DNA of 64,000 nucleotides, taken from Sinomonas atrocyanea (GTDB lineage: Bacteria; Actinomycetota; Actinomycetes; Actinomycetales; Micrococcaceae). The stretch lies in contig NZ_JAUSRH010000004.1 in the NCBI RefSeq assembly GCF_030811715.1, forward strand, positions 62,001 through 126,000, written 5' to 3'. The notes beneath the pieces are model-generated. The model was not told the origin of the DNA. It did not search any database and was given only the letters and a program-made list of their open reading frames with translations. Below are positions 1,686 to 12,828 of the stretch, one piece after another (within the stretch, counting starts at the first letter, position 1; every line of letters begins with the position of its first letter). Both the position numbers and the translations under genes were made by a program.

Positions 1686-2465
1686 CTACGGTCTTGGAGT
1701 GGCCACGGATGAGGAACTCGAAGGCCAGACGTCCATCGAGGAGGCGCTGGCGGACCTCGGCGAGCCGTGGACCGCCGAGTCGGAGACCGACGAGGACCCC
1801 ACGCCCACCCTCTTCTGACCGACAGGGACGACCACCGACGTCGCGAGCAGCCCGCGCGCGGCCGTCCACTGCCCGGCGAGCTCCGTCACCTCGACGCCGG
1901 CCACGACGGGACCGGCCACGAGGAGCCGGGCCCGGAACCGGCCGCCCTGCCGGAACTCGATGCGGACATCCTCGAACCCGAGCCACCGCCCCGTCAGGGG
2001 GTACCAGGCCTTGTAGACGGCCTCCTTCGCGCTGAAGAGGAGCCGGTCTGCCGCGACAGCGTCCCGCGCTCCCGGCCAGATCCCTGCCCGTTCCCCCGCA
2101 CACGCCACGAGGTCCAGGACTCCGGGGGGCAGCGGCGCGTTCGGCTCAGCGTCGATGCCGACGCTCGCCACGGCCCCAGCCCGGGCCACCGCGGCGGCCC
2201 GGTAGTGCGGGCAGTGCGTCATGCTCCCGACCACCCCGGCCGGCCACACCGGCGCGCCATCGGCCCCCGGCACGAGGGGCGCCGGTGCCACGCCGAGCTC
2301 CGCGAGGGCCTCCCGGGCGCAGGCGCGCACGGCCTCGAAGTCCGCCCTCCTCGCCGCTGTGCTGCCCGCGACCGTCGCGAGCTCCTCCGGGAAGAGCACG
2401 ACGCCGGCCCCGTCGCCGAAGCGCTCTTCGGCGCGGACCGCCGCCGGCAGGATGGCCCGGAGCAT
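1686..2465 (-). CDS. 4'-phosphopantetheinyl transferase, EntD/Sfp-like
   Basis: Transfers phosphopantetheine from CoA to the carrier-protein serine of an NRPS. The Mg-binding/catalytic signatures are present: GSMTHC near residue 79, VGIDAEPNAPLP near 103 and FSAKEAVYKAW near 148, all in EntD-type order. The ATG at 2465 overlaps the NRPS stop as TGATG, so translation is coupled and the obvious client is Ser589 of that NRPS. The family usually ends soon after the VVVP strand, about residue 215; this frame continues ~45 further residues rich in Ser, Val and Pro to 1686, over a small plus-strand frame. That tail may be a lost-stop extension. Confidence 0.9.
   Translation of the reverse strand: MLRAILPAAVRAEERFGDGAGVVLFPEELATVAGSTAARRADFEAVRACAREALAELGVAPAPLVPGADGAPVWPAGVVGSMTHCPHYRAAAVARAGAVASVGIDAEPNAPLPPGVLDLVACAGERAGIWPGARDAVAADRLLFSAKEAVYKAWYPLTGRWLGFEDVRIEFRQGGRFRARLLVAGPVVAGVEVTELAGQWTAARGLLATSVVVPVGQKRVGVGSSSVSDSAVHGSPRSASASSMDVWPSSSSSVATPRP
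1699..1818 (+). CDS. Possible small acidic protein antisense to the PPTase tail
   Basis: A GTG-started frame of 39 residues, ending at 1818, with a very acidic composition (EELEGQTSIEEALADLGEP). Codon choice looks coding-like, and the opposite strand here encodes only the low-complexity tail of the phosphopantetheinyl transferase. No recognisable family and no clear ribosome binding site. Either this short protein is real and the PPTase reads through it, or it is chance; I rate it low. Confidence 0.3.
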   Translation: MATDEELEGQTSIEEALADLGEPWTAESETDEDPTPTLF

Positions 2466-5400
2466 CAGGACCACCGTCCCCCGTCCGCCCCCGATCGGAG
2501 CGGCTGCGGCAGGGCCGGGAGCTGCTGGGCGGGGTTCCCGCCGAACCTCATCCCGGCAGGGACCTCCTCGCCCTTCATGACGAAGGAGTCCGGCTCGACC
2601 GCCGTCCCGTCGCCGAGGTTCACGCCGTAGTGCACGAACGCCTTGACGCCGAGGGTGCAGCCGGAACCGATGACCGTATCCGCCAGCTTGAAGGTTCCGT
2701 CCTCCATCGAGTGGCACTGGATGACGCACCGGGCGTTGAGCATGCAGTCGTCGCCGATCGTGACAGTCGTCTTCTCGGGGATGCCGGCGCCGTCGTCGAA
2801 CAGGCGGCGGCCGACGTTCAGGCCGCGCGTCCTCCACAGGAAGCCCTTGAACGGAGTGCCGTTCAGCAGTGCCGCGTAGGGATCGTTGCTGAGCTTCCAG
2901 AAGCGTTCGTGCCGCCAGAACGGGCGCTGGTAGATCGAGCAGAACTTCGGGACCAACCTGCGGAAGCCCCGCGCGGCGCATTCGATGACGGTGTAGTAGC
3001 AGGTGGTGAAGAGGAACAGCGCCAGGACGGCCCCGGTCGCCGTGAGGACTGCTTGGGCGGGGTCGATGGTCAGGGCGAAGGTGCCGATCAGCAGGGTCGC
3101 GAAGGTGAAGCCTTCCCGGGCCAGCAAGAAGAGCAGGATGGTCACGGCGTTGTGCCGGTTCTTCGCCCTCAGCGCGGACTTGAACGCCGGGCCGCTCTTG
3201 AGCTCATCAAAGGCTGCGTCGGACTGGACGCTCCGGGGGATCTCGAAGCTCGGAGAGCCGAGGAGGCCGACGTCCTCCCGGACGGCCCCGTCCAGCGGGA
3301 CCATAGCCTTCGTGGCGATGAGGCAGTTCTCCCCCGTCCTGGCATCCGGCGGGTACAGGATGCCGTTCCCCAGGAAGCTGCGCCTGCCGATGGACACCGG
3401 GGTGATCTGGAAGGAGCTGCTCGAGAACTGCGCGCTCATGACGGACAGCCCATCCGCAACCATGGTGCCGCTCCCCACCGTGCACGCAAAGGGGCTCTCG
3501 TGCTTGACCTCCATTCCGAAGTTCGAGCCTGTCTGCACCAGCTCGGGCATCCTGTAGCCGATGAGCCGCAGGTAGTGCGGGATGAGTGAGCTGTCGCCGG
3601 TGAGCTGGATCAGGAACTTCAGGTTCGTCAGGCGGCCGATGGTCCGGTGGAGCCCGTAGTGGAACCCGTACAGCGGGTACACCCTGCCGGGCCTGAGCAG
3701 CAGGTTGAGGGCCCGCGGGATCAGCGTGATGCCCAGGAGGAGGACGACGATGAGGGCCCCGAGCACGGTGGCGGCAATGCCGGCGAGGCGCAGGTAGTAG
3801 GCCGCATTCCCGGTGTCGACTCCGGCGGCCGCGACGACCAGGGGGACCAGGCCCGCGAAGACGCTCGTCCCGAACGGGATGACCAGGAGCACAGTAAACA
3901 GGAGGTTCCAGACGCCGTAGAAGAACCTCCGGCCCGTGCCGCAGGGCGCCGGCGGCGCACCGCTGTAGTCGACGGCGCACGGCTGGGCCGGGGACCCGTG
4001 CCACGACTGACGGTCGGGGATGGCCTGCCCGGCGTAGAGCGCGGACGCGTGGCCGAGCTGGGCGCGGTCCCCGACGCGGGCGCCGATGTCCAGCACGGTG
4101 GCCTCGCTGATCACCGCGCCCTCCCCGACCGTGACGGCGCCCGTCTGGATCATCCCCCCGAGCGCGCGGTAGCAGCTGAGGCTCGCGTCCTTGCGGACCA
4201 CGGTCCCTGCCCCGACGCTCAGGAGGTCGGTGCACACCGGCACCTCGGTGGTGAAGACCGTGGCGCCGCGGCCGATCCGGGCCCCGAGCGCCCGCAAGTA
4301 CAGCACGTACAGCGGCGAGCCCGCGAGCAGCCTCATCGGGCTGGTGCGGAGGACGGCGCGGACCAGCCAGAACCGGAAGTAGCGCAGGGACCACACGGGG
4401 AACTCCGTGGGCCGCCACCGCCCGACCACCAGCCACTTCACCGCCACGGGCAGCACGCACAGGCCGGCGTACACCACCGCCCCGAACAGCGTGGCGCGCA
4501 GCCACCCATCCAGCGGGTCCGTCGCGGCACCGAGGTACTGGAAGCCGGTGGCCATCGCGAAGCCGGCCAGGAAGGCTCCGAGGACATAGGTCAGCGCCTG
4601 GAGGGCGCCGCAGAGCACGTACTGGAAGGTGGAGGCGCGTTCCGGCGTCGTCGGCTTCTCCGAGGTGACCGCCGCGGCGGCCGGGGGTGCGGCGGGCGCC
4701 GCGGCGGCGAGCGAGCGGATCGTCGGGTGCAGGTAGGTGTCCTTCATCGACACGGGAACGAGGTCTGGGTCCTTCCTGACGATCGCGCAGAAGTGCGCCA
4801 TAGTGATCGAGCTCGCGCCGAGGTCGGCGAAGAAGTCGGCCTCCACGGAGACCGCCGGCTCTCCCAGGGCCTCGGCGAGCGCGCGGGCCAGCTTCGCCTC
4901 CCGATCGGTCGCCGGGGGCGCGGGCGCGGTGGCGGCGTCGTCGCCGCCCCGCCGGCCTGGCGCGGGCAGCCGGCGGCGGTCCACCTTGTCGCTGGGCAGC
5001 AGCGGGAAGGCCTCCAGCTCCTGCAGGAAGGCCGGGCGCATGTAGGCGGGCAGCGCCCGCCGGAGGTGTTCGCGCACGACGGCGCGCTCGACCCCGCCGC
5101 CGTCGCGTCGCCTGCTGTAGTAGGCCGCCAGCTCCACGACACCGGGGCTCGGCTCGTGGGTGACGACGGCGGCCTGGGCGACGCCGGGGATCTGGAGGAT
5201 GACGGATTCGATCTCGGCGAGCTCGATCCGGTAGCCGTGGACCTTGACCTGGGAGTCGATCCGGCCGTGGTACTCGATCTCGCCATCCGCGTTGATGCGG
5301 CCCAGATCGCCGGTCCGGTAGATCCGGTGGCTCGGATTGTCGGGCAGGTCCAGGAAGTCCGGGATGAACGCCTTCTGGGTCAGGTCCGGGCGGTTGACGT

Positions 5401-6574
5401 AGCCGCGCGCGAGGCCGATCCCGGCGAGCCCGATCTCGCCGAGCTCGCCGGCACCCACGGTGCTGTCGTTCTCGACGTCGAGGATCACCGCAGCATAGGT
5501 GGGAAGCGGTGTGCCCAGGGTCGGCGGGCGGTGGGGGTCCACCACCGACCACGTGGCGGTGACGGTGGCCTCGGTGGGCCCGTACACGTTGAGGAACCTG
5601 CGCTCGGGCCGGTGCCAGCGCTCCACGAGATCGGGCGGGCATGCCTCCCCGGACACGAGCAGGAACCGCAGGCCCGGGACGTCGTCCTCGAGGGTGGACA
5701 GGAGCGTCGGCACGCAGCAGAGGGCGGTGACGGCGCGCCGCTGCAGGAATTCGGCCAGCTCGATCCCCACCAGGCTCGTGCTGCCGTCCTTCGGCACGAG
5801 GGTGGCGCCGCTCATCCACGGGACCCAGATCTCCTCGACCGAGAAGTCGAAGGCGGTGGTCATGCCCTGGTAGACCCGGTCGTCCGGCCGGATGCCGTAG
5901 ACGCCCGCGGCCACTCGGACGAAGTTGCAGATGCTCGCGTGCTCGACAGCGACTCCCTTGGGCCTGCCCGTCGAGCCGGAGGTGTAGATGATGTACGCCA
6001 GCTGGTCCTGCTCCGGGCCGCGCTCGTCGGCGCTGAGGCGCAGCGGCGACTCGGAGCCGAGCGTCGCCTCCTCGTCGTCGAGGTACAGGGCCCGGGCGGT
6101 CCCGTCCGGCACCACGTCGCGAAGGTGGGACAGTGAGAGCAAGGTGGCCACGCCGGCGTCGTCCATGATGTAGGAGATCCGCTCGGGCGGGAACGCAACG
6201 TCCAGCGGCACATAGGCGGCATGCGCCTTGAGCACGGCCAGCATGGCCGCGTACGTGAAGACGGGCTGGTCGAACAGCAGCGCGAGCCGGTCCCCCGCCC
6301 GGACGCCCCGGGCGCGGAGGCGGCGCGCGAGCCGGTTGGTCCAGGCGTCGAGCTCGTCGTAGGTGAGGGTGAACCCTCCGGCATCGACTGCCAGCCTGTC
6401 GCCGTGCCCCGCGTCGCGGAGGCGGTCGCAGGCCTCTTCGAACAGCGTCTCCAGCCGCTCCCCCGGGTGCCACCGGATGCCGTCGTCGCCCGAGGCGGCG
6501 AGGAGGGAGTCCGGACGGCCGTTTTCGGAGGCGGGGCGGCTGGGCGCCTCCCGGGTCGCGAGGTGCTTGGGCAT
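2465..6574 (-). CDS. Pls/PosA-family single-module NRPS (poly-amino acid synthetase)
   Basis: A 1369-residue membrane NRPS. Residues ~40-535 are an adenylation domain: A3 YIIYTSGSTGRPKG, A5 NVYGPTEATVTATW, A7 YRTGDLGRI, A10 Lys530 in PSDKVDRR. A carrier domain follows, with Ser589 in DLGASSI. From ~660 on, six hydrophobic segments alternate with three soluble blocks of hexapeptide-like repeats (e.g. GARIGRGATVFTTE, VSIGRRSFLGNG, VTIGDDCMLNARC). No canonical HHxxxDG condensation domain and no thioesterase. This is the layout of epsilon-poly-L-lysine synthetase, which polymerises one cationic amino acid through its side-chain amine and sets chain length itself. Aligning A4-A5 to GrsA by eye gives a pocket of D-F-E-C-L-S-V-V-T-K. 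The coupled diaminobutyrate aminotransferase 10 bases upstream suggests a Dab substrate. RBS AGGAGG at 6581-6586 overlaps the upstream stop. Confidence 0.92.
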   Translation of the reverse strand: MPKHLATREAPSRPASENGRPDSLLAASGDDGIRWHPGERLETLFEEACDRLRDAGHGDRLAVDAGGFTLTYDELDAWTNRLARRLRARGVRAGDRLALLFDQPVFTYAAMLAVLKAHAAYVPLDVAFPPERISYIMDDAGVATLLSLSHLRDVVPDGTARALYLDDEEATLGSESPLRLSADERGPEQDQLAYIIYTSGSTGRPKGVAVEHASICNFVRVAAGVYGIRPDDRVYQGMTTAFDFSVEEIWVPWMSGATLVPKDGSTSLVGIELAEFLQRRAVTALCCVPTLLSTLEDDVPGLRFLLVSGEACPPDLVERWHRPERRFLNVYGPTEATVTATWSVVDPHRPPTLGTPLPTYAAVILDVENDSTVGAGELGEIGLAGIGLARGYVNRPDLTQKAFIPDFLDLPDNPSHRIYRTGDLGRINADGEIEYHGRIDSQVKVHGYRIELAEIESVILQIPGVAQAAVVTHEPSPGVVELAAYYSRRRDGGGVERAVVREHLRRALPAYMRPAFLQELEAFPLLPSDKVDRRRLPAPGRRGGDDAATAPAPPATDREAKLARALAEALGEPAVSVEADFFADLGASSITMAHFCAIVRKDPDLVPVSMKDTYLHPTIRSLAAAAPAAPPAAAAVTSEKPTTPERASTFQYVLCGALQALTYVLGAFLAGFAMATGFQYLGAATDPLDGWLRATLFGAVVYAGLCVLPVAVKWLVVGRWRPTEFPVWSLRYFRFWLVRAVLRTSPMRLLAGSPLYVLYLRALGARIGRGATVFTTEVPVCTDLLSVGAGTVVRKDASLSCYRALGGMIQTGAVTVGEGAVISEATVLDIGARVGDRAQLGHASALYAGQAIPDRQSWHGSPAQPCAVDYSGAPPAPCGTGRRFFYGVWNLLFTVLLVIPFGTSVFAGLVPLVVAAAGVDTGNAAYYLRLAGIAATVLGALIVVLLLGITLIPRALNLLLRPGRVYPLYGFHYGLHRTIGRLTNLKFLIQLTGDSSLIPHYLRLIGYRMPELVQTGSNFGMEVKHESPFACTVGSGTMVADGLSVMSAQFSSSSFQITPVSIGRRSFLGNGILYPPDARTGENCLIATKAMVPLDGAVREDVGLLGSPSFEIPRSVQSDAAFDELKSGPAFKSALRAKNRHNAVTILLFLLAREGFTFATLLIGTFALTIDPAQAVLTATGAVLALFLFTTCYYTVIECAARGFRRLVPKFCSIYQRPFWRHERFWKLSNDPYAALLNGTPFKGFLWRTRGLNVGRRLFDDGAGIPEKTTVTIGDDCMLNARCVIQCHSMEDGTFKLADTVIGSGCTLGVKAFVHYGVNLGDGTAVEPDSFVMKGEEVPAGMRFGGNPAQQLPALPQPLRSGADGGRWS

Positions 6575-6584
6575 GGCGGGCCTC

Positions 6585-7964
<1,380 letters not shown>

Positions 7965-8030
7965 GGACAGCGGCTCGTTTCTCTCGTGGCGGCGGAAAGG
8001 CGGACTGTGCGAGCGGGCGCGGGGGCGCCC

Positions 8031-8678
8031 TCAGGCGGTGCGGCGGCCCAGGTGTAGCCCCGCGTCGAGGGCGTCGATCGCCTCGGTGACCCGTGCGGCC
8101 GGGATCACCACGGCCAGGCAGTAGTCCGAGACTGAGATCGGGCCGGTCGGGATGCCGGCGGCGGAGAGGGTGGCGACGAAGTCGGGCACGATCGTCGGGG
8201 TGGACCGCAGCCCGATCCCCTTCAGCGACAGCTTGGCGGCGTCGTCCCGGTAGCGCAGCCCGCTGAACCCGATGGACGTCCTCCGGCGGCGCAGCGCTTC
8301 CATGGCCCGGGGCCGGTCACGCACGGGCGAGGTGAACATGATGTCCCGCATCCCGTCCCCGGGCATCGGGCCGCTCTCCGAGAACATGTCCACGCCCGTT
8401 CCGGCCTCGGCGAGGGCCAGCAGGACGGCCGCGACGCGGTCGGCGCCGCCCGGGCTGCCGGCCACGGTGATCTCGGCGACGGGGCCGTCCACGCTCAGGC
8501 CGGAGATCTCCGCCTCCTCCTTGAACGGCTTCCGCCGGACCGGCTCCGTCAGCAGGCCGATGGAAGGGATCACCGCGCCCTCCGGCTCGGCAGCGGCGCT
8601 CGGGCGGGTCCGGGAGTAGCTCCCCCGGGGTACCAAGAACAGTCTTGCGGCGCGGAAAAGCGTCGATAACGTGACCAT
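8031..8678 (-). CDS. Stand-alone double-ACT protein, aspartokinase beta-subunit-like
   Basis: 215 residues that align, by eye, with the regulatory half of LysC-type aspartokinase: VPRGSYSRTRPS matches the linker strand before the ACT pair, then ACT1 (~55-130, AEITVAGSPGGADR, SIGFSGLRY) and ACT2 (~135-205, AKLSLKGIGLRS). The kinase domain is absent. In LysC the second ACT usually reads MISTSEIRIS at the Lys/Thr effector site; here it is PISVSDYCLA, so effector binding is probably altered. Start ATG 8678 has AGGAGG seven bases upstream; a GTG at 8693 is alternative. It lies 66 bases before dat, which suggests it tunes flux from aspartate to semialdehyde, perhaps by pairing with the housekeeping kinase. 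That role is inference. Confidence 0.72.
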   Translation of the reverse strand: MVTLSTLFRAARLFLVPRGSYSRTRPSAAAEPEGAVIPSIGLLTEPVRRKPFKEEAEISGLSVDGPVAEITVAGSPGGADRVAAVLLALAEAGTGVDMFSESGPMPGDGMRDIMFTSPVRDRPRAMEALRRRRTSIGFSGLRYRDDAAKLSLKGIGLRSTPTIVPDFVATLSAAGIPTGPISVSDYCLAVVIPAARVTEAIDALDAGLHLGRRTA

Positions 8679-8774
8679 GCCGGGCCTCCTCACAGTGCGC
8701 CCTACCGGTCTGAGTTCCCCCTTGCCCCAGTCGCTGCGGCTCTCTGCTACAAGAGTGGAAGCATTGCTCGGGAC

Positions 8775-8806
8775 GCTGGAGGGGAAAAGGTCCTGTCCCT
8801 TCCAGC
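8775..8806. terminator. Imperfect hairpin between homoserine-dehydrogenase-like and ACT genes
   Basis: GCTGGA and TCCAGC arms extended by GGG/CCC with one mismatch, in the 138-base gap between the two minus-strand genes. There is no T-run, so it may be a processing or attenuation hairpin instead of a terminator. Confidence 0.35.
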
Positions 8807-8816
8807 GGCCCGGATG

Positions 8817-9833
8817 TTACTGGTGGGGCACGTGGCGCGCGGCCAGCAGGTGCTCGAAGTCCTTCAGTGCCGCCGCCGCGGTGGCCCGCGGATGGGACGC
8901 CCCTCCGGTCACCGTCAGCGTGCCCATCTCCTCGGTGACCGCGCGGAGGCCCTTCATGCTCCCGCGCAGCTGGGCGAACGGGTGGTCCTCCCCGTAGAGG
9001 CGAAGCTCGACGCCGGCCCGGAACCCGCCGCCGTCGTGCTCGGCGACGCCGACGAGCCGCGGGGTGAGGCCCGCGGACTTCCACTGCGCGACGTGTCCGG
9101 GCGTCACCGCGCCGATTCCCTCCCGCGGCAGCCCGTCGAGGCGCAGGTCCGCGTCGAAGACGGCGTTGGCGATGATGACCAGCTTGGCCGCGGTGTCCCA
9201 GCCGTCGATGTCGAAGCTGGGGTCCGGCTCGGCGATGCCCTGCGCCTGTGCGAGGGCCACGGCGTCCGAGAGCCCGAGGCCGGCGGCGGCCATCTGGTCG
9301 AGGACGAAGGCCGCGGTGCCGGTCAGCACCGCTTCGAACCCCTGGAGCGTGGCGCCGGCCAGGCTGTGCGAGAGCAGGTCCACCGTGGGCAGCGCCGAGG
9401 CGGCGGCACCGCTGAAGCGCAGGCTCCCGCCGTGCTCCGCGGCCAGCCGCAGGAGCCCGCGGAGGTCGACGACGAGGGCGCCCTTCGACACCGCGATGGC
9501 GTCCAGGCCGCGGGCGAGGGCCCAGCGCAGGTGGCCGAGCGCCGCTCCGCCGGTGGCGTAGTCGCTGGGCCCGGCCTCGATGAGCACGTCGGCGCGGACG
9601 GCCTCGAGGAAGGCCTCGCCGGTGAGCCCGTGCACGAAGCCGCTGCGGTCCGCGAGCCGTTCGGGCGCGAGGCCCGCGGGATCGACGAGGCCCGCGGTCG
9701 AACCGCAGACCCCCGTGATCCGTACCTGGACGCCGTGGCGCGCACGGTACGCCGCGGCGCGGGCCTCGAGCATCGAAGTGATCTCGCGGGCTATCCGGCC
9801 GTAGCCGGTGACCGCCACGTCGACGGTCCTCAC
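8817..9833 (-). CDS. Homoserine-dehydrogenase-like oxidoreductase
   Basis: 338 residues with an N-terminal NAD(P) fold (VTGYGRIAREI), VSKGALV, and the homoserine-dehydrogenase active-site segment SFDIDGWDTAAKL near 215-227, which supplies the conserved Asp and Lys. There is no C-terminal ACT domain, so it is the short form. The family interconverts aspartate 4-semialdehyde and homoserine. Starts with GTG at 9833, overlapping the GntR stop by four bases (GTGA), so it is translated with the regulator. In a locus that spends aspartate semialdehyde on diaminobutyrate, a second homoserine dehydrogenase is surprising; it may act on a related semialdehyde or serve as a branch-point valve. Function assignment is by motif, substrate uncertain. 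Confidence 0.75.
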   Translation of the reverse strand: MRTVDVAVTGYGRIAREITSMLEARAAAYRARHGVQVRITGVCGSTAGLVDPAGLAPERLADRSGFVHGLTGEAFLEAVRADVLIEAGPSDYATGGAALGHLRWALARGLDAIAVSKGALVVDLRGLLRLAAEHGGSLRFSGAAASALPTVDLLSHSLAGATLQGFEAVLTGTAAFVLDQMAAAGLGLSDAVALAQAQGIAEPDPSFDIDGWDTAAKLVIIANAVFDADLRLDGLPREGIGAVTPGHVAQWKSAGLTPRLVGVAEHDGGGFRAGVELRLYGEDHPFAQLRGSMKGLRAVTEEMGTLTVTGGASHPRATAAAALKDFEHLLAARHVPHQ

Positions 9834-10633
9834 CCTGGCAGGCCGCCGTGGGACGCGGCGCCGCCGTGGGACGCGGCGCCGCCCGGGGAGGGCGCGACGC
9901 CGGACGAGTGGAGCTCGCTGAGCTCAGCCATGGTGCGCGTCATGATGGCTCGCATGGCGGCGTGGGCGGCGTCTGGATCCGAGCGCTGGATCGCCGCGGC
10001 CACGTCCATGTGGAGCTGGAGCGCGTCGGGGTGGGGGCGGGAGGGCATGAGGCCGAAGTGGGTGCGGCCCGCGAGGACCTCGGCGACGCTGGGGTGCAGC
10101 GCTGCGAACATCTCGTTGCCTGATGCGGCGAGGATGAAACGGTGGAACTCGGTGTCCACCCGCAGGAAGCGCTCGGCGTCCGCGCTCTGGCCCGCGGCCC
10201 AGAGCTCGCCGGCCAGTTCGAGGAGCTCCGCGGTCTCGCGCTCGTTGGCGCGCACGGCGGCCAGGCGCGCCGCTTCGGGCTCGACGGCGCCGCGCAGCTC
10301 CGTCAGCGATCGCAGCTGGGCGAAGCGGCCCGCCGAGGCGAGCCGCCACTGGATGACCTGGGGCGCGAAGACGTTCCACTCGCTGGCCGGGAGGATCTGG
10401 ATGCCCAGCCGGCGGCGGATCGCCACGAGGCCCATCGCGGCCAGCACGCGGAGCGCCTCGCGGACCACCGAGCGGGAGACGGCGTAGCGCTCCTCGAGCT
10501 CCTCGATCTGGATCACGCTGCCCTCGGGCAGGGACCCCTCGGCGATGGCCGATCCGAGGCTCTCGACGAGCTTGGTGTGGAGTCCGCCCGGTTCGGAGGA
10601 TCCCGCCGGACGCGGCGAACCGGCCTGGGCCAT
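9830..10633 (-). CDS. GntR-family (FadR/FCD) transcriptional regulator
   Basis: 267 residues: winged-helix DNA-binding domain ~20-85 (LEERYAVSRSVVREALRVLAAMGLV) and an all-helical FCD ligand domain to ~240 with the metal/ligand residues in DTEFHRFILAASGN. ATG 10633 has GGAGG just upstream. The C-terminus carries a perfect 18-bp tandem duplication at 9841-9878 (repeating A-S-H-G-G), outside the fold. It is divergent from a gluconate-type transporter-gluconokinase pair and overlaps the homoserine-dehydrogenase-like gene. A gluconate-responsive repressor is the simplest reading; the overlap means the polymer-precursor genes may share its control. Confidence 0.88.
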   Translation of the reverse strand: MAQAGSPRPAGSSEPGGLHTKLVESLGSAIAEGSLPEGSVIQIEELEERYAVSRSVVREALRVLAAMGLVAIRRRLGIQILPASEWNVFAPQVIQWRLASAGRFAQLRSLTELRGAVEPEAARLAAVRANERETAELLELAGELWAAGQSADAERFLRVDTEFHRFILAASGNEMFAALHPSVAEVLAGRTHFGLMPSRPHPDALQLHMDVAAAIQRSDPDAAHAAMRAIMTRTMAELSELHSSGVAPSPGGAASHGGAASHGGLPG

Positions 10634-10687
10634 GGGGGCCTCCTTCCGCGTCCTGATCCCTCCCCTGAGACTCCCACATCATAGCTG

Positions 10688-10720
10688 TTGCACGGATCAC
10701 CTCTTTAGATATGATCTAAA
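10688..10720 (+). promoter_or_regulatory. Promoter with operator dyad for the gluconate-type pair
   Basis: TTGCAC at 10688-10693 and TATGAT at 10710-10715 are separated by 16 bases. A perfect dyad TTTAGAT-ATG-ATCTAAA spans 10704-10720 and covers the -10 box. This is a natural place for repression by the adjacent GntR protein. Confidence 0.62.
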
Positions 10721-10833
10721 CCTTGCCAGAGGGGCAAAGAACAGATGTAAGAACCATCGGGAGTGACTATGGCGTCAGCTCATTCGGCCGCGCTGGCCGG
10801 TGCCGCGCACCGGGACTCCCAGCGAGGGAGGCC

Positions 10834-12255
10834 ATGATGGACCAGGCGACAATCCGGCGATTGTCTGACGAGGCAACCGACGTCCTGCTCAACAAGGACG
10901 GCACGTCATCCAGCCGCCGCGGCGGCTGGATGATGATCGCGACCATCCTCATCGAGGCGTGGGACCTCTACGCGATCTCCTTCGTCCTCGTCTTCATCAC
11001 CGCCGAGTACCACCCCACGGCCGCCCAGCTCGGCCTCGTCACGGCCGGCGTCCAGGGCGGCGCGCTGATCGGGGCCCTCCTCGGCGGGTACGTCGCGGAC
11101 AGGCTCGGGCGCAAGCGGGTCTTCATCATCACGATGGTGCTGTTCATCGTGCTCGCGATCGCCCAGGGCTTCTCGCAGAACGTGTGGGACCTGATCATCC
11201 TGCGGATCCTCATCGGGATCCCGCTCGGCTCGGACATCTCCAACGGCTACGCGTACATCATGGAGTCGATGTCCAAGGGCTCCCGCGAGGTCATGGGCAG
11301 CCGCTGGCAGTTCATGTTCGGCCTCGGCGAGGTCTTCTCGATCGTGGTCATCACGGTCATGTACATGACCGGCATGGACCACGCGGTCCTGTGGCGCGTG
11401 GCCCTCGCGATCGGCGCGGTCCCCGCGTTCATCCTCCTGCTGGCCCGGCTCGACCTGCCCGAGACACCACTCTCGCTCATCCAGCGGGGCAAGTTCGCCA
11501 AGGCCAAGGAAGTCTCGCTGCGCCTCTTCGACGAGCCGCTGGACATGCTCCCCGACCGCGACGTCGAGATCGAGCGGCCCAAGGTCGGCGACTTCCTCCG
11601 GGTCACGTGGGCCGACCGGACGCGCCGCCGCGCCACGGTCTTCGGGTGGATCTCCAACGCCTGCCAGGGCGCGGAGTTCACGGCCTTCGGCTTCTACCTG
11701 CCGGTCATCCTCGTCAGCGCCGGCGTCGGCGTGGTGGGCGGGGGCGCCGCGGCGAACATCACGGGGACGAACTTCGTCACGGCCGGCATCTACGTGCTCG
11801 CGACCATCTCGGGCCTCGTGGCGCCGATCATGATCACCAAGATCGGCCACCGCGGCGTGTCCATGTGGGGCTTCGGCCTCGCGTTCGTCGGCCTCCTGAT
11901 CGGTGCCGCCGCGCTGGGCGCGAACATCCAGTGGCTCATCGTCCTGGGCGCGTGCGTGCTCATGTGGGGCCACTACTGGGCCGCCTCGAACGGCATGACG
12001 ATCGTCTCCATGGTCGCGCCCTCCCGGTTCCGGGCCACCGCCTCGGGCTTCGGCTACGTGTTCGTGAAGGCCGCCTCGTTCTTCGGCGCGTTCGTCTTCC
12101 CGATCATGACCGCCTCCTGGGGCAAGGTCGGCGCCACGGTCGCGGTGTCCGTGCTCTCGCTCATCGGCCTCCTCTCCGCGAAGTTCATCCTTCCCGAGCT
12201 CTACGGCTACGTGGACCGCGAAGGTGGGCTCGAGGCCTCCGAGCTCAAGGCCTGA
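10834..12255 (+). CDS. MFS transporter, gluconate/sugar-acid type
   Basis: 473 residues with 12 predicted membrane spans. The MFS loop signature GGYVADRLGRKRVF is near residue 88, and its second-half counterpart near ITKIGHRGVS. RIPIGSDI-like helix 4/5 region reads LRILIGIPLGSDISNGYAY, a sugar-porter-like feature. Start ATG 10834 has GGGAGG five bases upstream; the preceding in-frame codons from 10723 look non-coding and contain the leader. It is followed after one base by gluconokinase, so gluconate or a similar sugar acid is the likely cargo. Regulated by the divergent GntR through the dyad on its promoter. Confidence 0.87.
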   Translation: MMDQATIRRLSDEATDVLLNKDGTSSSRRGGWMMIATILIEAWDLYAISFVLVFITAEYHPTAAQLGLVTAGVQGGALIGALLGGYVADRLGRKRVFIITMVLFIVLAIAQGFSQNVWDLIILRILIGIPLGSDISNGYAYIMESMSKGSREVMGSRWQFMFGLGEVFSIVVITVMYMTGMDHAVLWRVALAIGAVPAFILLLARLDLPETPLSLIQRGKFAKAKEVSLRLFDEPLDMLPDRDVEIERPKVGDFLRVTWADRTRRRATVFGWISNACQGAEFTAFGFYLPVILVSAGVGVVGGGAAANITGTNFVTAGIYVLATISGLVAPIMITKIGHRGVSMWGFGLAFVGLLIGAAALGANIQWLIVLGACVLMWGHYWAASNGMTIVSMVAPSRFRATASGFGYVFVKAASFFGAFVFPIMTASWGKVGATVAVSVLSLIGLLSAKFILPELYGYVDREGGLEASELKA

Positions 12256-12256
12256 C

Positions 12257-12790
12257 GTGGAGCTTCCCCCCGGACCCGGCCTCTGGGTCGTCATGGGCGT
12301 CTCGGGTGCCGGCAAGACCACGGCGGGCCAGGCCCTGGCGGCCCACCTCGGCGTCCCGTTCGGCGATGCGGACGATCTGCACCCCGCCGCGAACGTGGCG
12401 AAGATGCAGTCCGGGGTGGCGCTGGACGACGCCGACCGCGCACCCTGGCTCGCCGCCGTCGGGGCGTGGCTGGCCGAGCGCAGGGACGGAGCGGTGATGA
12501 GCTGCTCCGCCCTGCGCCGGGCCTACCGGGACGCCCTCCGCGAGCACGCGGGGCCGGTCAGGTTCCTGCACCTGGCCGGGGCCGCCGAGGTGGTCCGCGC
12601 CCGGGTCGAGGCCCGGGAGGGCCACTACATGCCGGCCTCGCTCGTGGAGAGCCAATATGCCGCGCTCGAGCCCCTCGGGGACGAGGAGGAGGGGCTCACG
12701 GTGGGCTTCGACGAGCCGATCGGGGCGATCGTGGCGCGCGCCGCGGCCGCGGCCCTGCCGGCCACCGCGGGCCGAGTGCACGTGGCCTGA
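12257..12790 (+). CDS. gntK: Gluconokinase
   Basis: 177 residues, shikimate-kinase-like P-loop fold. Walker A is GVSGAGKTT near residue 14, then the gluconate-specific DADDLHPAANVAKM and the lid segment SCSALRRAYRD; GHYMPASLVESQ closes the active site. Phosphorylates D-gluconate to 6-phosphogluconate. GTG start at 12257 lies directly after the transporter stop, so expression depends on the upstream gene. A second gluconokinase is at 24554. Confidence 0.93.
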   Translation: MELPPGPGLWVVMGVSGAGKTTAGQALAAHLGVPFGDADDLHPAANVAKMQSGVALDDADRAPWLAAVGAWLAERRDGAVMSCSALRRAYRDALREHAGPVRFLHLAGAAEVVRARVEAREGHYMPASLVESQYAALEPLGDEEEGLTVGFDEPIGAIVARAAAAALPATAGRVHVA

Positions 12791-12828
12791 CCTGCCGTCC
12801 TCCGGGGCCGGGGACTATGATCCGCCTG

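What the first reader, a model, noticed from the sequence alone, without database searches (positions are those of the whole stretch)
1686..10633. Candidate locus for a poly-cationic homopolymer (poly-diaminobutyrate-like)
A Pls/PosA-type single-module NRPS with three tandem C-terminal hexapeptide-type domains, its PPTase, a diaminobutyrate aminotransferase, an aspartokinase-type ACT protein, a homoserine-dehydrogenase-like protein and a GntR regulator lie head to tail on one strand with coupled starts (TGATG, GTGA). Known Pls systems carry no precursor genes of this sort. The gene order argues that the monomer is 2,4-diaminobutyrate from aspartate semialdehyde. Hand-derived A-domain pocket (D-F-E-C-L-S-V-V-T-K) supports a basic side chain but I cannot match it to a known code.
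Basis: partly seen in the sequence, partly recalled or inferred. Interest (0 to 1): 0.85.

Follow-up and report, generated by a model that had tools for sequence, protein, structure and literature searches.

The report
Poly-diaminobutyrate cluster with kinase-less aspartokinase
An actinobacterium carries a four-gene set that probably makes a positively charged polymer of diaminobutyrate; where relatives have a precursor-supply kinase, it keeps only that enzyme's regulatory half, which is nevertheless under strong selection.

Summary
The NRPS is a complete Pls/PosA-family enzyme with pocket DFECLSVVTK. I compared 35 distinct loci with this pocket: 28 have a Dab aminotransferase in the fetched flanks, of two distinct types.

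(1) Precursor genes beside such a synthetase are not new: the published poly-D-Dab system PddA-PddD has a Dab transaminase and an aspartate kinase. (2) GntR and the homoserine-dehydrogenase-like gene are not part of the conserved cassette: a sister species keeps both but has lost ACT-dat-NRPS-PPTase, leaving a PPTase scar, and neither gene is in the fetched flanks of the other 34 loci.

The real oddity is the "ACT protein". 15 of 35 loci hold an apparently intact aspartate kinase, 2 a full-length kinase with degraded motifs, 16 none found, and 2 (here and one sister species) the regulatory half alone. That half is not decaying (dN/dS 0.084 over the ACT part), folds like aspartokinase beta subunits, and has lost 14 of 15 residues at the Lys/Thr effector site. 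I suggest a stand-alone beta-type subunit that desensitises the housekeeping aspartokinase; this is inferred, not shown. Overall: a new variant of a known kind.

The parts
2465..6574 (-). Pls/PosA-family single-module synthetase, 1369 aa: A domain (core motifs at 197, 329, 419, 437, 527), T domain (FFADLGASSITM at 581), C-terminal module 655-1349; pocket DFECLSVVTK
6585..7964 (-). Diaminobutyrate--2-oxoglutarate aminotransferase (class III; SKALSG motif at 297)
8031..8678 (-). Stand-alone double-ACT protein, equivalent to an aspartokinase beta subunit with a ~50 aa N-terminal part that aligns loosely with the end of the kinase domain; alternative start GTG 8693
1686..2465 (-). 4'-phosphopantetheinyl transferase, start coupled to the NRPS stop (TGATG); its C-terminal tail runs on past the stop position seen in the G003 gene and the G002 remnant
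8769..8812 (-). Hairpin just after the hom stop codon, present also in G003, no T run: possible terminator separating hom from the cassette
8817..9833 (-). Homoserine-dehydrogenase-like gene: neighbour, not part of the conserved cassette
9830..10633 (-). GntR/FCD regulator overlapping hom by GTGA: neighbour; beside hom also in G002 and G003

Best explanation
Window 8678-1686 is a four-gene cassette (ACT protein, Dab aminotransferase, Pls/PosA synthetase, PPTase) for an isopeptide homopolymer of 2,4-diaminobutyrate, most likely gamma-poly-L-Dab. Aspartokinase and aspartate-semialdehyde dehydrogenase of primary metabolism give aspartate semialdehyde (general knowledge; asd was not searched for); the aminotransferase makes L-Dab; the PPTase arms the T domain; the A domain adenylates Dab; the membrane-bound tandem C-terminal repeats join units iteratively. 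Shown here: families, motifs, pocket, conserved neighbourhood, cassette boundaries, selection. Inferred: product, stereochemistry, polymerisation. GntR and hom are neighbours outside the cassette. The ACT protein stands where relatives carry a pathway aspartokinase and is probably what remains of it; most likely (about 0.33, the leading single mechanism) it acts in trans as a substitute beta subunit on the housekeeping aspartokinase and makes it insensitive to Lys/Thr.
For: NRPS above the TIGR02353 cut-off. Same pocket in 35 distinct loci, Dab aminotransferase in the fetched flanks of 28 of 35, of two distinct types: 12 like the window's (69-100%; the window's and L138's pass TIGR00709) and 16 EctB-like (37-41%; 11 of 16 scanned, all over the EctB cut-off). 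Of 11 control Pls-type loci with other pockets or no A domain, one has a match that passes the same 150-bit limit (172 bits), and it is an acetylornithine transaminase. Published precedent of similar gene content, PddA/PddC/PddD; Phe at position 2 for poly-Dap/poly-Dab. A single DapF-type gene in the own genome, on another contig, at E <= 0.001, hence L-Dab preferred. Cassette absent as a block from G002, which keeps the last 15 PPTase codons and stop next to hom. ACT part: dN 0.020, dS 0.24, ratio 0.084, Fisher p 3e-11; sequence and predicted fold match AK beta subunits; 14 of 15 effector-site residues changed. The housekeeping lysC of 15 of 15 genus genomes keeps GAGGGAG-TCGC[CT]-TTG before the beta-equivalent segment, with TTG 2 of 30 Leu and GGA 1 of 39 Gly codons in the own gene: it looks like an alpha/beta enzyme.
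Against: No product, expression or enzyme data. The pocket of the characterised poly-Dab synthetase itself was not seen (supplement not available); poly-Dap synthetases also have Phe at position 2. 7 of 35 loci have no aminotransferase in the fetched flanks (two of these genomes, G169 and G181, have another copy that does), and 16 of 35 no aspartokinase. I did not check whether EctB-type genes sit in ectoine operons. PddB resembles DapF only weakly, so a distant racemase could be missed. Depletion at the effector site is modest (1 of 15 kept versus 55 of 143 elsewhere, p 0.01, not corrected for 17 proteins compared), and 7 of the 15 positions were my choice. Association of the ACT protein with housekeeping AK was not tested.
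Confidence: 0.72

Rival explanations
1. All six genes form one poly-Dab operon; GntR regulates it and the Hom-like enzyme feeds or balances aspartate semialdehyde.
For: Same strand; GntR/hom overlap; hom lies directly before ACT here. G003 keeps the last codons of hom attached upstream of ACT, so adjacency is old in this clade.
Against: G002 keeps GntR-hom without the cassette. G007 and G014 have hom (71-72%) and no NRPS orthologue. GntR and hom appear in the fetched flanks of 0 of the 34 other loci (in G003 they lie beyond 6.2 kb of other genes, outside the stretch searched). 138 bp gap with a hairpin. Homoserine formation would drain the precursor (inference).
Confidence: 0.1
2. The monomer is another small diamino acid such as 2,3-diaminopropionate, the aminotransferase serving something else.
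For: [quoted passage not shown]
Against: Two distinct types of Dab aminotransferase recur beside the same pocket (28 of 35 loci) and aspartokinase-related genes in 19 of 35; no Dap synthesis gene among the genes and close neighbours of the window that were scanned.
Confidence: 0.12
3. The ACT gene is a decaying remnant of the pathway aspartokinase, translated but useless.
For: Kinase half missing; the N-terminal part evolves faster (ratio 0.25); relatives have the full kinase; long stem branch (1.74) in the tree.
Against: Ratio 0.084 for the ACT part and 0.14 for the whole gene, in the range of dat 0.12 and below NRPS 0.18 and PPTase 0.21; Shine-Dalgarno-like GAGGAGG kept in both species; in G174/G185 a full-length pathway AK with degraded kinase motifs keeps its frame.
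Confidence: 0.2
4. The ACT protein is a sensor for another ligand (for example Dab) acting on the aminotransferase, the synthetase or a regulator rather than on aspartokinase.
For: Effector site rewritten (14 of 15 changed) yet constrained: fits a new ligand as well as no ligand.
Against: Fold and extent are those of AK beta subunits, and a plausible AK partner exists in the genome.
Confidence: 0.3

Closest known systems
Poly-D-Dab system PddA-PddD, Streptoalloteichus hindustanus (PMC8225329; passages and the introduction read)
   Same: Single-module membrane NRPS-like synthetase with a Dab transaminase (PddC) and a pathway aspartate kinase (PddD) named as part of the biosynthesis genes.
   Different: Here no DapF-like racemase (PddB), a coupled PPTase, and only the regulatory half of the kinase.
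Pls (epsilon-poly-lysine) and PosA (delta-poly-ornithine) synthetases (PMC10522769; passages and one section read)
   Same: A-T-tandem C-terminal architecture, TIGR02353, Asp and Glu at pocket positions 1 and 3.
   Different: Pocket position 2 is Phe here (Ala in Pls, Met in PosA); precursor genes adjacent.
Poly-L-Dap synthetase PDAPs, Streptomyces albulus PD-1 (PMC4668381; passages read)
   Same: Same architecture; Phe at position 2 according to PMC10522769.
   Different: Its precursor genes are reported as not close to the synthetase; here a Dab aminotransferase is adjacent.
Aspartokinase beta subunit, Corynebacterium glutamicum LysC-beta and Mycobacterium tuberculosis AK-beta (PDB 2dtj, 3s1t)
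   Same: Double-ACT fold; residues 59-216 of the full ORF align with 2-159 of 2dtj; best Foldseek hit 3s1t_B, TM by target 0.91.
   Different: Separate gene in a biosynthetic cassette rather than an internal product of lysC; effector-site residues replaced.

Membership tests
Pls/PosA family synthetase (TIGR02353) | C-terminal domain over the curated cut-off | tested here: met
   669.4 bits versus 423.1, positions 2-695 of 695
Pls/PosA family synthetase (TIGR02353) | Single A and T domain before it, no classical C or TE domain | tested here: met
   Pfam at E <= 0.001 finds AMP-binding, AMP-binding_C and PP-binding only
Cationic homopolymer synthetase | Asp and Glu at pocket positions 1 and 3 | tested here: met
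   D243 and E247; feature from PMC10522769
Cationic homopolymer synthetase | Makes an isopeptide homopolymer | not testable with these tools
   needs enzyme or metabolite work
Poly-Dab (Pdd-type) cluster | Dab transaminase in the cluster | tested here: met
   10 bp upstream of the NRPS; TIGR00709 469.9 versus 401.6 bits
Poly-Dab (Pdd-type) cluster | Pathway aspartate kinase (PddD) in the cluster | tested here: not met
   only the ACT half is present; no kinase motif in the frame
Poly-Dab (Pdd-type) cluster | DapF-like Dab racemase (PddB) coupled to the synthetase | tested here: not met
   none in the cassette; one DapF match in the whole genome, on another contig, at E <= 0.001; a very distant racemase could be missed
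Poly-Dab (Pdd-type) cluster | Pocket identical to PddA | not tested
   PddA sequence and supplement not available; the Amycolatopsis sp. 2-2 locus with AK, NRPS and dat has the same pocket
Aspartokinase beta subunit | Double-ACT fold | tested here: met
   pLDDT block means 85-97 from residue 61 to 200, Foldseek E 1.2e-16
Aspartokinase beta subunit | Lys/Thr effector-site residues | tested here: not met
   1 of 15 kept
Aspartokinase beta subunit | Assembles with an alpha subunit | not testable with these tools
   needs co-purification

The most novel reading that the evidence does not exclude
A natural trans-acting feedback override: a biosynthetic cassette encodes no kinase of its own but a free-standing, effector-blind aspartokinase beta-type subunit that swaps into the housekeeping alpha2beta2 enzyme and frees it from Lys/Thr inhibition when the cationic polymer is made.
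Probability: 0.33. Interest if true: 0.75.

Novelty: new variant of a known kind. Interest (0 to 1): 0.52.

Why it matters
It adds a candidate poly-Dab locus with clear boundaries in a Micrococcaceae genome and shows that a Dab-aminotransferase/synthetase neighbourhood recurs in many actinobacterial and some proteobacterial loci. If the ACT reading holds, a producer has solved precursor supply by replacing a regulatory subunit rather than duplicating the enzyme, a simple part that could deregulate the aspartate pathway in trans in amino-acid producers.

Tried and rejected
Six-gene operon with hom and GntR: rejected on comparative grounds. Insertion of the cassette beside hom as the reason for its absence in G002: rejected, because a PPTase 3' scar shows loss instead. 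ACT as pseudogene: made unlikely by dN/dS. Origin of the ACT protein from the housekeeping or from a pathway kinase: the tree does not decide, its stem is too long; origin is inferred from position. Other stand-alone relatives: at E <= 1e-24 only the own genome in 396 genomes of the order; the sister G003 is not among its hits, so it was not in that sample, and the limit, set above the housekeeping scores of about 1e-22, would miss weaker relatives. Promoter/terminator consensus scan of 8600-8900: nothing. The pocket string was in none of the papers found. Literature searches around aspartokinase regulatory subunits, pathway aspartokinases and feedback resistance gave no paper whose title or abstract start describes such a stand-alone subunit (listings, with passages read in PMC10464499 and PMC8690038). 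I recall, from no call, old C. glutamicum work in which a plasmid-borne mutant beta-coding fragment gave feedback-resistant aspartokinase; not verified. PMC8117764, PMC9606270 and PMC12283262: passages only; they gave no pocket for poly-Dab synthetase.
Full report
WHAT IS THERE. Six minus-strand genes fill 10633-1686 as described. The NRPS (6574-2465, 1369 aa) scores 669 bits on TIGR02353 (cut-off 423) and has one A and one T domain; A3, A5, A7, A8 and A10 motifs and a T-domain Ser motif are in place (motif names recalled). The aminotransferase passes TIGR00709, and the PPTase has its two Pfam domains. The PPTase starts in the NRPS stop codon (TGATG). The genome belongs to the family of Arthrobacter bambusae (G390 is that record: L087 and L135 share their sequence).

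POCKET. PMC10522769 (passages and one section read) reports Asp and Glu at positions 1 and 3 as conserved, and Phe at position 2 in poly-Dap/poly-Dab synthetases, Met in PosA, Ala in Pls. The own genome also has a second Pls-type gene with pocket DAESIGTVVK.

NEIGHBOURHOOD TEST. A search of 395 family genomes gave 40 genomes at E <= 1e-150; I fetched flanks for 40 stretches, and homologues from named or plasmid records. The table has 39 rows. I dropped three rows with other pockets (L065 without aminotransferase, L139 and L140 with one) and one duplicate (L135 = L087), leaving 35 loci, all DFECLSVVTK by selection. A Dab aminotransferase (limit 150 bits) lies in the fetched flanks, about 8 kb a side, of 28 of 35: 12 of the window's type at 69-100% and 16 of a distant type at 37-41%. 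Eleven of those 16 were scanned and all pass the EctB cut-off, so two separate kinds of Dab aminotransferase accompany the same pocket. An aspartate kinase with both kinase motifs lies in 15 of 35, a full-length kinase with both motifs degraded in 2, the ACT half alone in 2 (window and G003), none in 16. The order AK(or ACT)-dat-NRPS on one strand holds in 7 of 35. Of 11 control loci (other pockets or no A domain: L068-L078) one has a match over the same limit (172 bits), and it is an acetylornithine transaminase.

GNTR AND HOM ARE NEIGHBOURS. In the genus, 15 genomes, the NRPS orthologue is present only in the own genome and G003, but hom at 84-85% is in G003 and G002, and at 71-72% in G007 and G014. 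G002 aligns to window -2755..1866 and 8833..12796 with 14 bases between. At that joint G002 keeps the last 15 codons and stop of the PPTase, so it lost the cassette by deletion and kept GntR-hom. In G003, 6.2 kb of other genes (MFS transporter, FAD oxidase-like, DapA-like, aldehyde dehydrogenase) split the hom end from ACT, with the last hom codons still next to ACT. Hom-ACT adjacency is therefore old in this clade, but GntR and hom were found in the fetched flanks of none of the other 34 loci. A hairpin follows the hom stop. The PPTase in the window runs on past the stop position of the G003 gene and the G002 remnant.

THE ACT PROTEIN. It matches only the regulatory part of aspartokinase, best the beta-subunit or regulatory-domain structures. 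Its N-terminal 50 residues align loosely with the end of the kinase domain. A model from 14 sequences gives pLDDT block means of 85-97 from residue 61 to 200 and below 50 for 1-49; Foldseek's first hit is M. tuberculosis AK-beta (3s1t_B, E 1.2e-16, TM by target 0.91), and C. glutamicum beta chains reach 0.88. Between window and G003 the ACT part has 7 nonsynonymous differences in 353 sites and 28 synonymous in 136, ratio 0.084, Fisher p 3e-11; the N-terminal part 0.25, the whole gene 0.14. Other genes: dat 0.12, NRPS 0.18, PPTase 0.21, hom 0.24. At 15 positions of and around the effector site (several are named in the substitution table of PMC10464499; the rest I chose as neighbours, using recalled C. 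glutamicum numbering) the four housekeeping enzymes compared keep 15, the pathway kinases 3-10, the window 1. Against the rest of the ACT region this depletion has p 0.01 for the window and G003, 0.036 for L082, and is not seen in the other 14 pathway kinases, so it is suggestive only. In G174/G185 the pathway kinase is full length but KFGGSS and GRGGSD are gone: probably a second loss of kinase function. The frame is kept there, but the two sequences are too close (dS 0.04) to prove selection on the kinase half (p 0.075).

POSSIBLE PARTNER. The own genome has one other aspartokinase match. In 15 of 15 genus genomes that gene carries GAGGGAG-TCGC[CT]-TTG exactly before the beta-equivalent segment; TTG is 2 of 30 Leu and GGA 1 of 39 Gly codons in the own gene. 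This fits an internal beta start, as in the alpha2beta2 enzymes with in-frame overlapping genes described in PMC8690038 (passages). A free beta-type protein without effector residues could replace the native beta and desensitise the enzyme. This step is inference.

MECHANISM AND STEREOCHEMISTRY. Aspartate semialdehyde to L-Dab by the aminotransferase, activation and loading on the PPTase-armed T domain, iterative isopeptide formation by the C-terminal repeats as proposed for PDAPs (PMC4668381 passages). PddB, the racemase of poly-D-Dab, has no detected counterpart here, so L-Dab is preferred; PddB resembles DapF weakly, so this is not proof.

NOVELTY. The poly-Dab cluster is of a known kind with published precedent (PMC8225329). 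The kinase-less regulatory gene is the new variant, which cover only the held open-access library, listed no paper on such an arrangement.

Noticed in passing
L070:6327-16388; also L068, L069, L077, L078, L056, L058: Pls-family proteins without an A domain: two or more tandem carrier domains (three in L070 by Pfam) followed by the Pls-type C-terminus. A separate A-T protein lies next door in L070 (pocket DIWQSTANHK there and in L077); L070 also has PALP-type and ornithine-cyclodeaminase family genes, the pair I recall from Dap synthesis. Looks like a polymerase loaded in trans.
   Followed up: partly
L221, L222, L223: Similar A-less proteins, 51, 51 and 48% identical to the window NRPS from about residue 544-559 on, in three genomes of one other genus of the class.
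   Followed up: no
L090:13767-15113 and L094:4793-6139: Full-length pathway aspartokinases with degraded kinase motifs (KYSSSS for KFGGSS, GRDGSD for GRGGSD) still kept beside dat and NRPS.
   Followed up: partly
L109-L123 (housekeeping lysC of 15 genomes): Strictly conserved internal Shine-Dalgarno-like sequence and rare TTG codon, a likely internal beta-subunit start.
   Followed up: yes
L060, L061, L062, L081, L082, L086, L089, L091, L137: M28-peptidase-like match within about 3.5 kb of the synthetase (Pfam checked in L061 only), perhaps polymer turnover or self-protection.
   Followed up: no
L071-L075: A further Pls-type group with pocket DFEYLGTVTK and no Dab-aminotransferase match nearby: substrate unknown.
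   Followed up: no
L067 (G273): Synthetase gene of this group split into two pieces.
   Followed up: no
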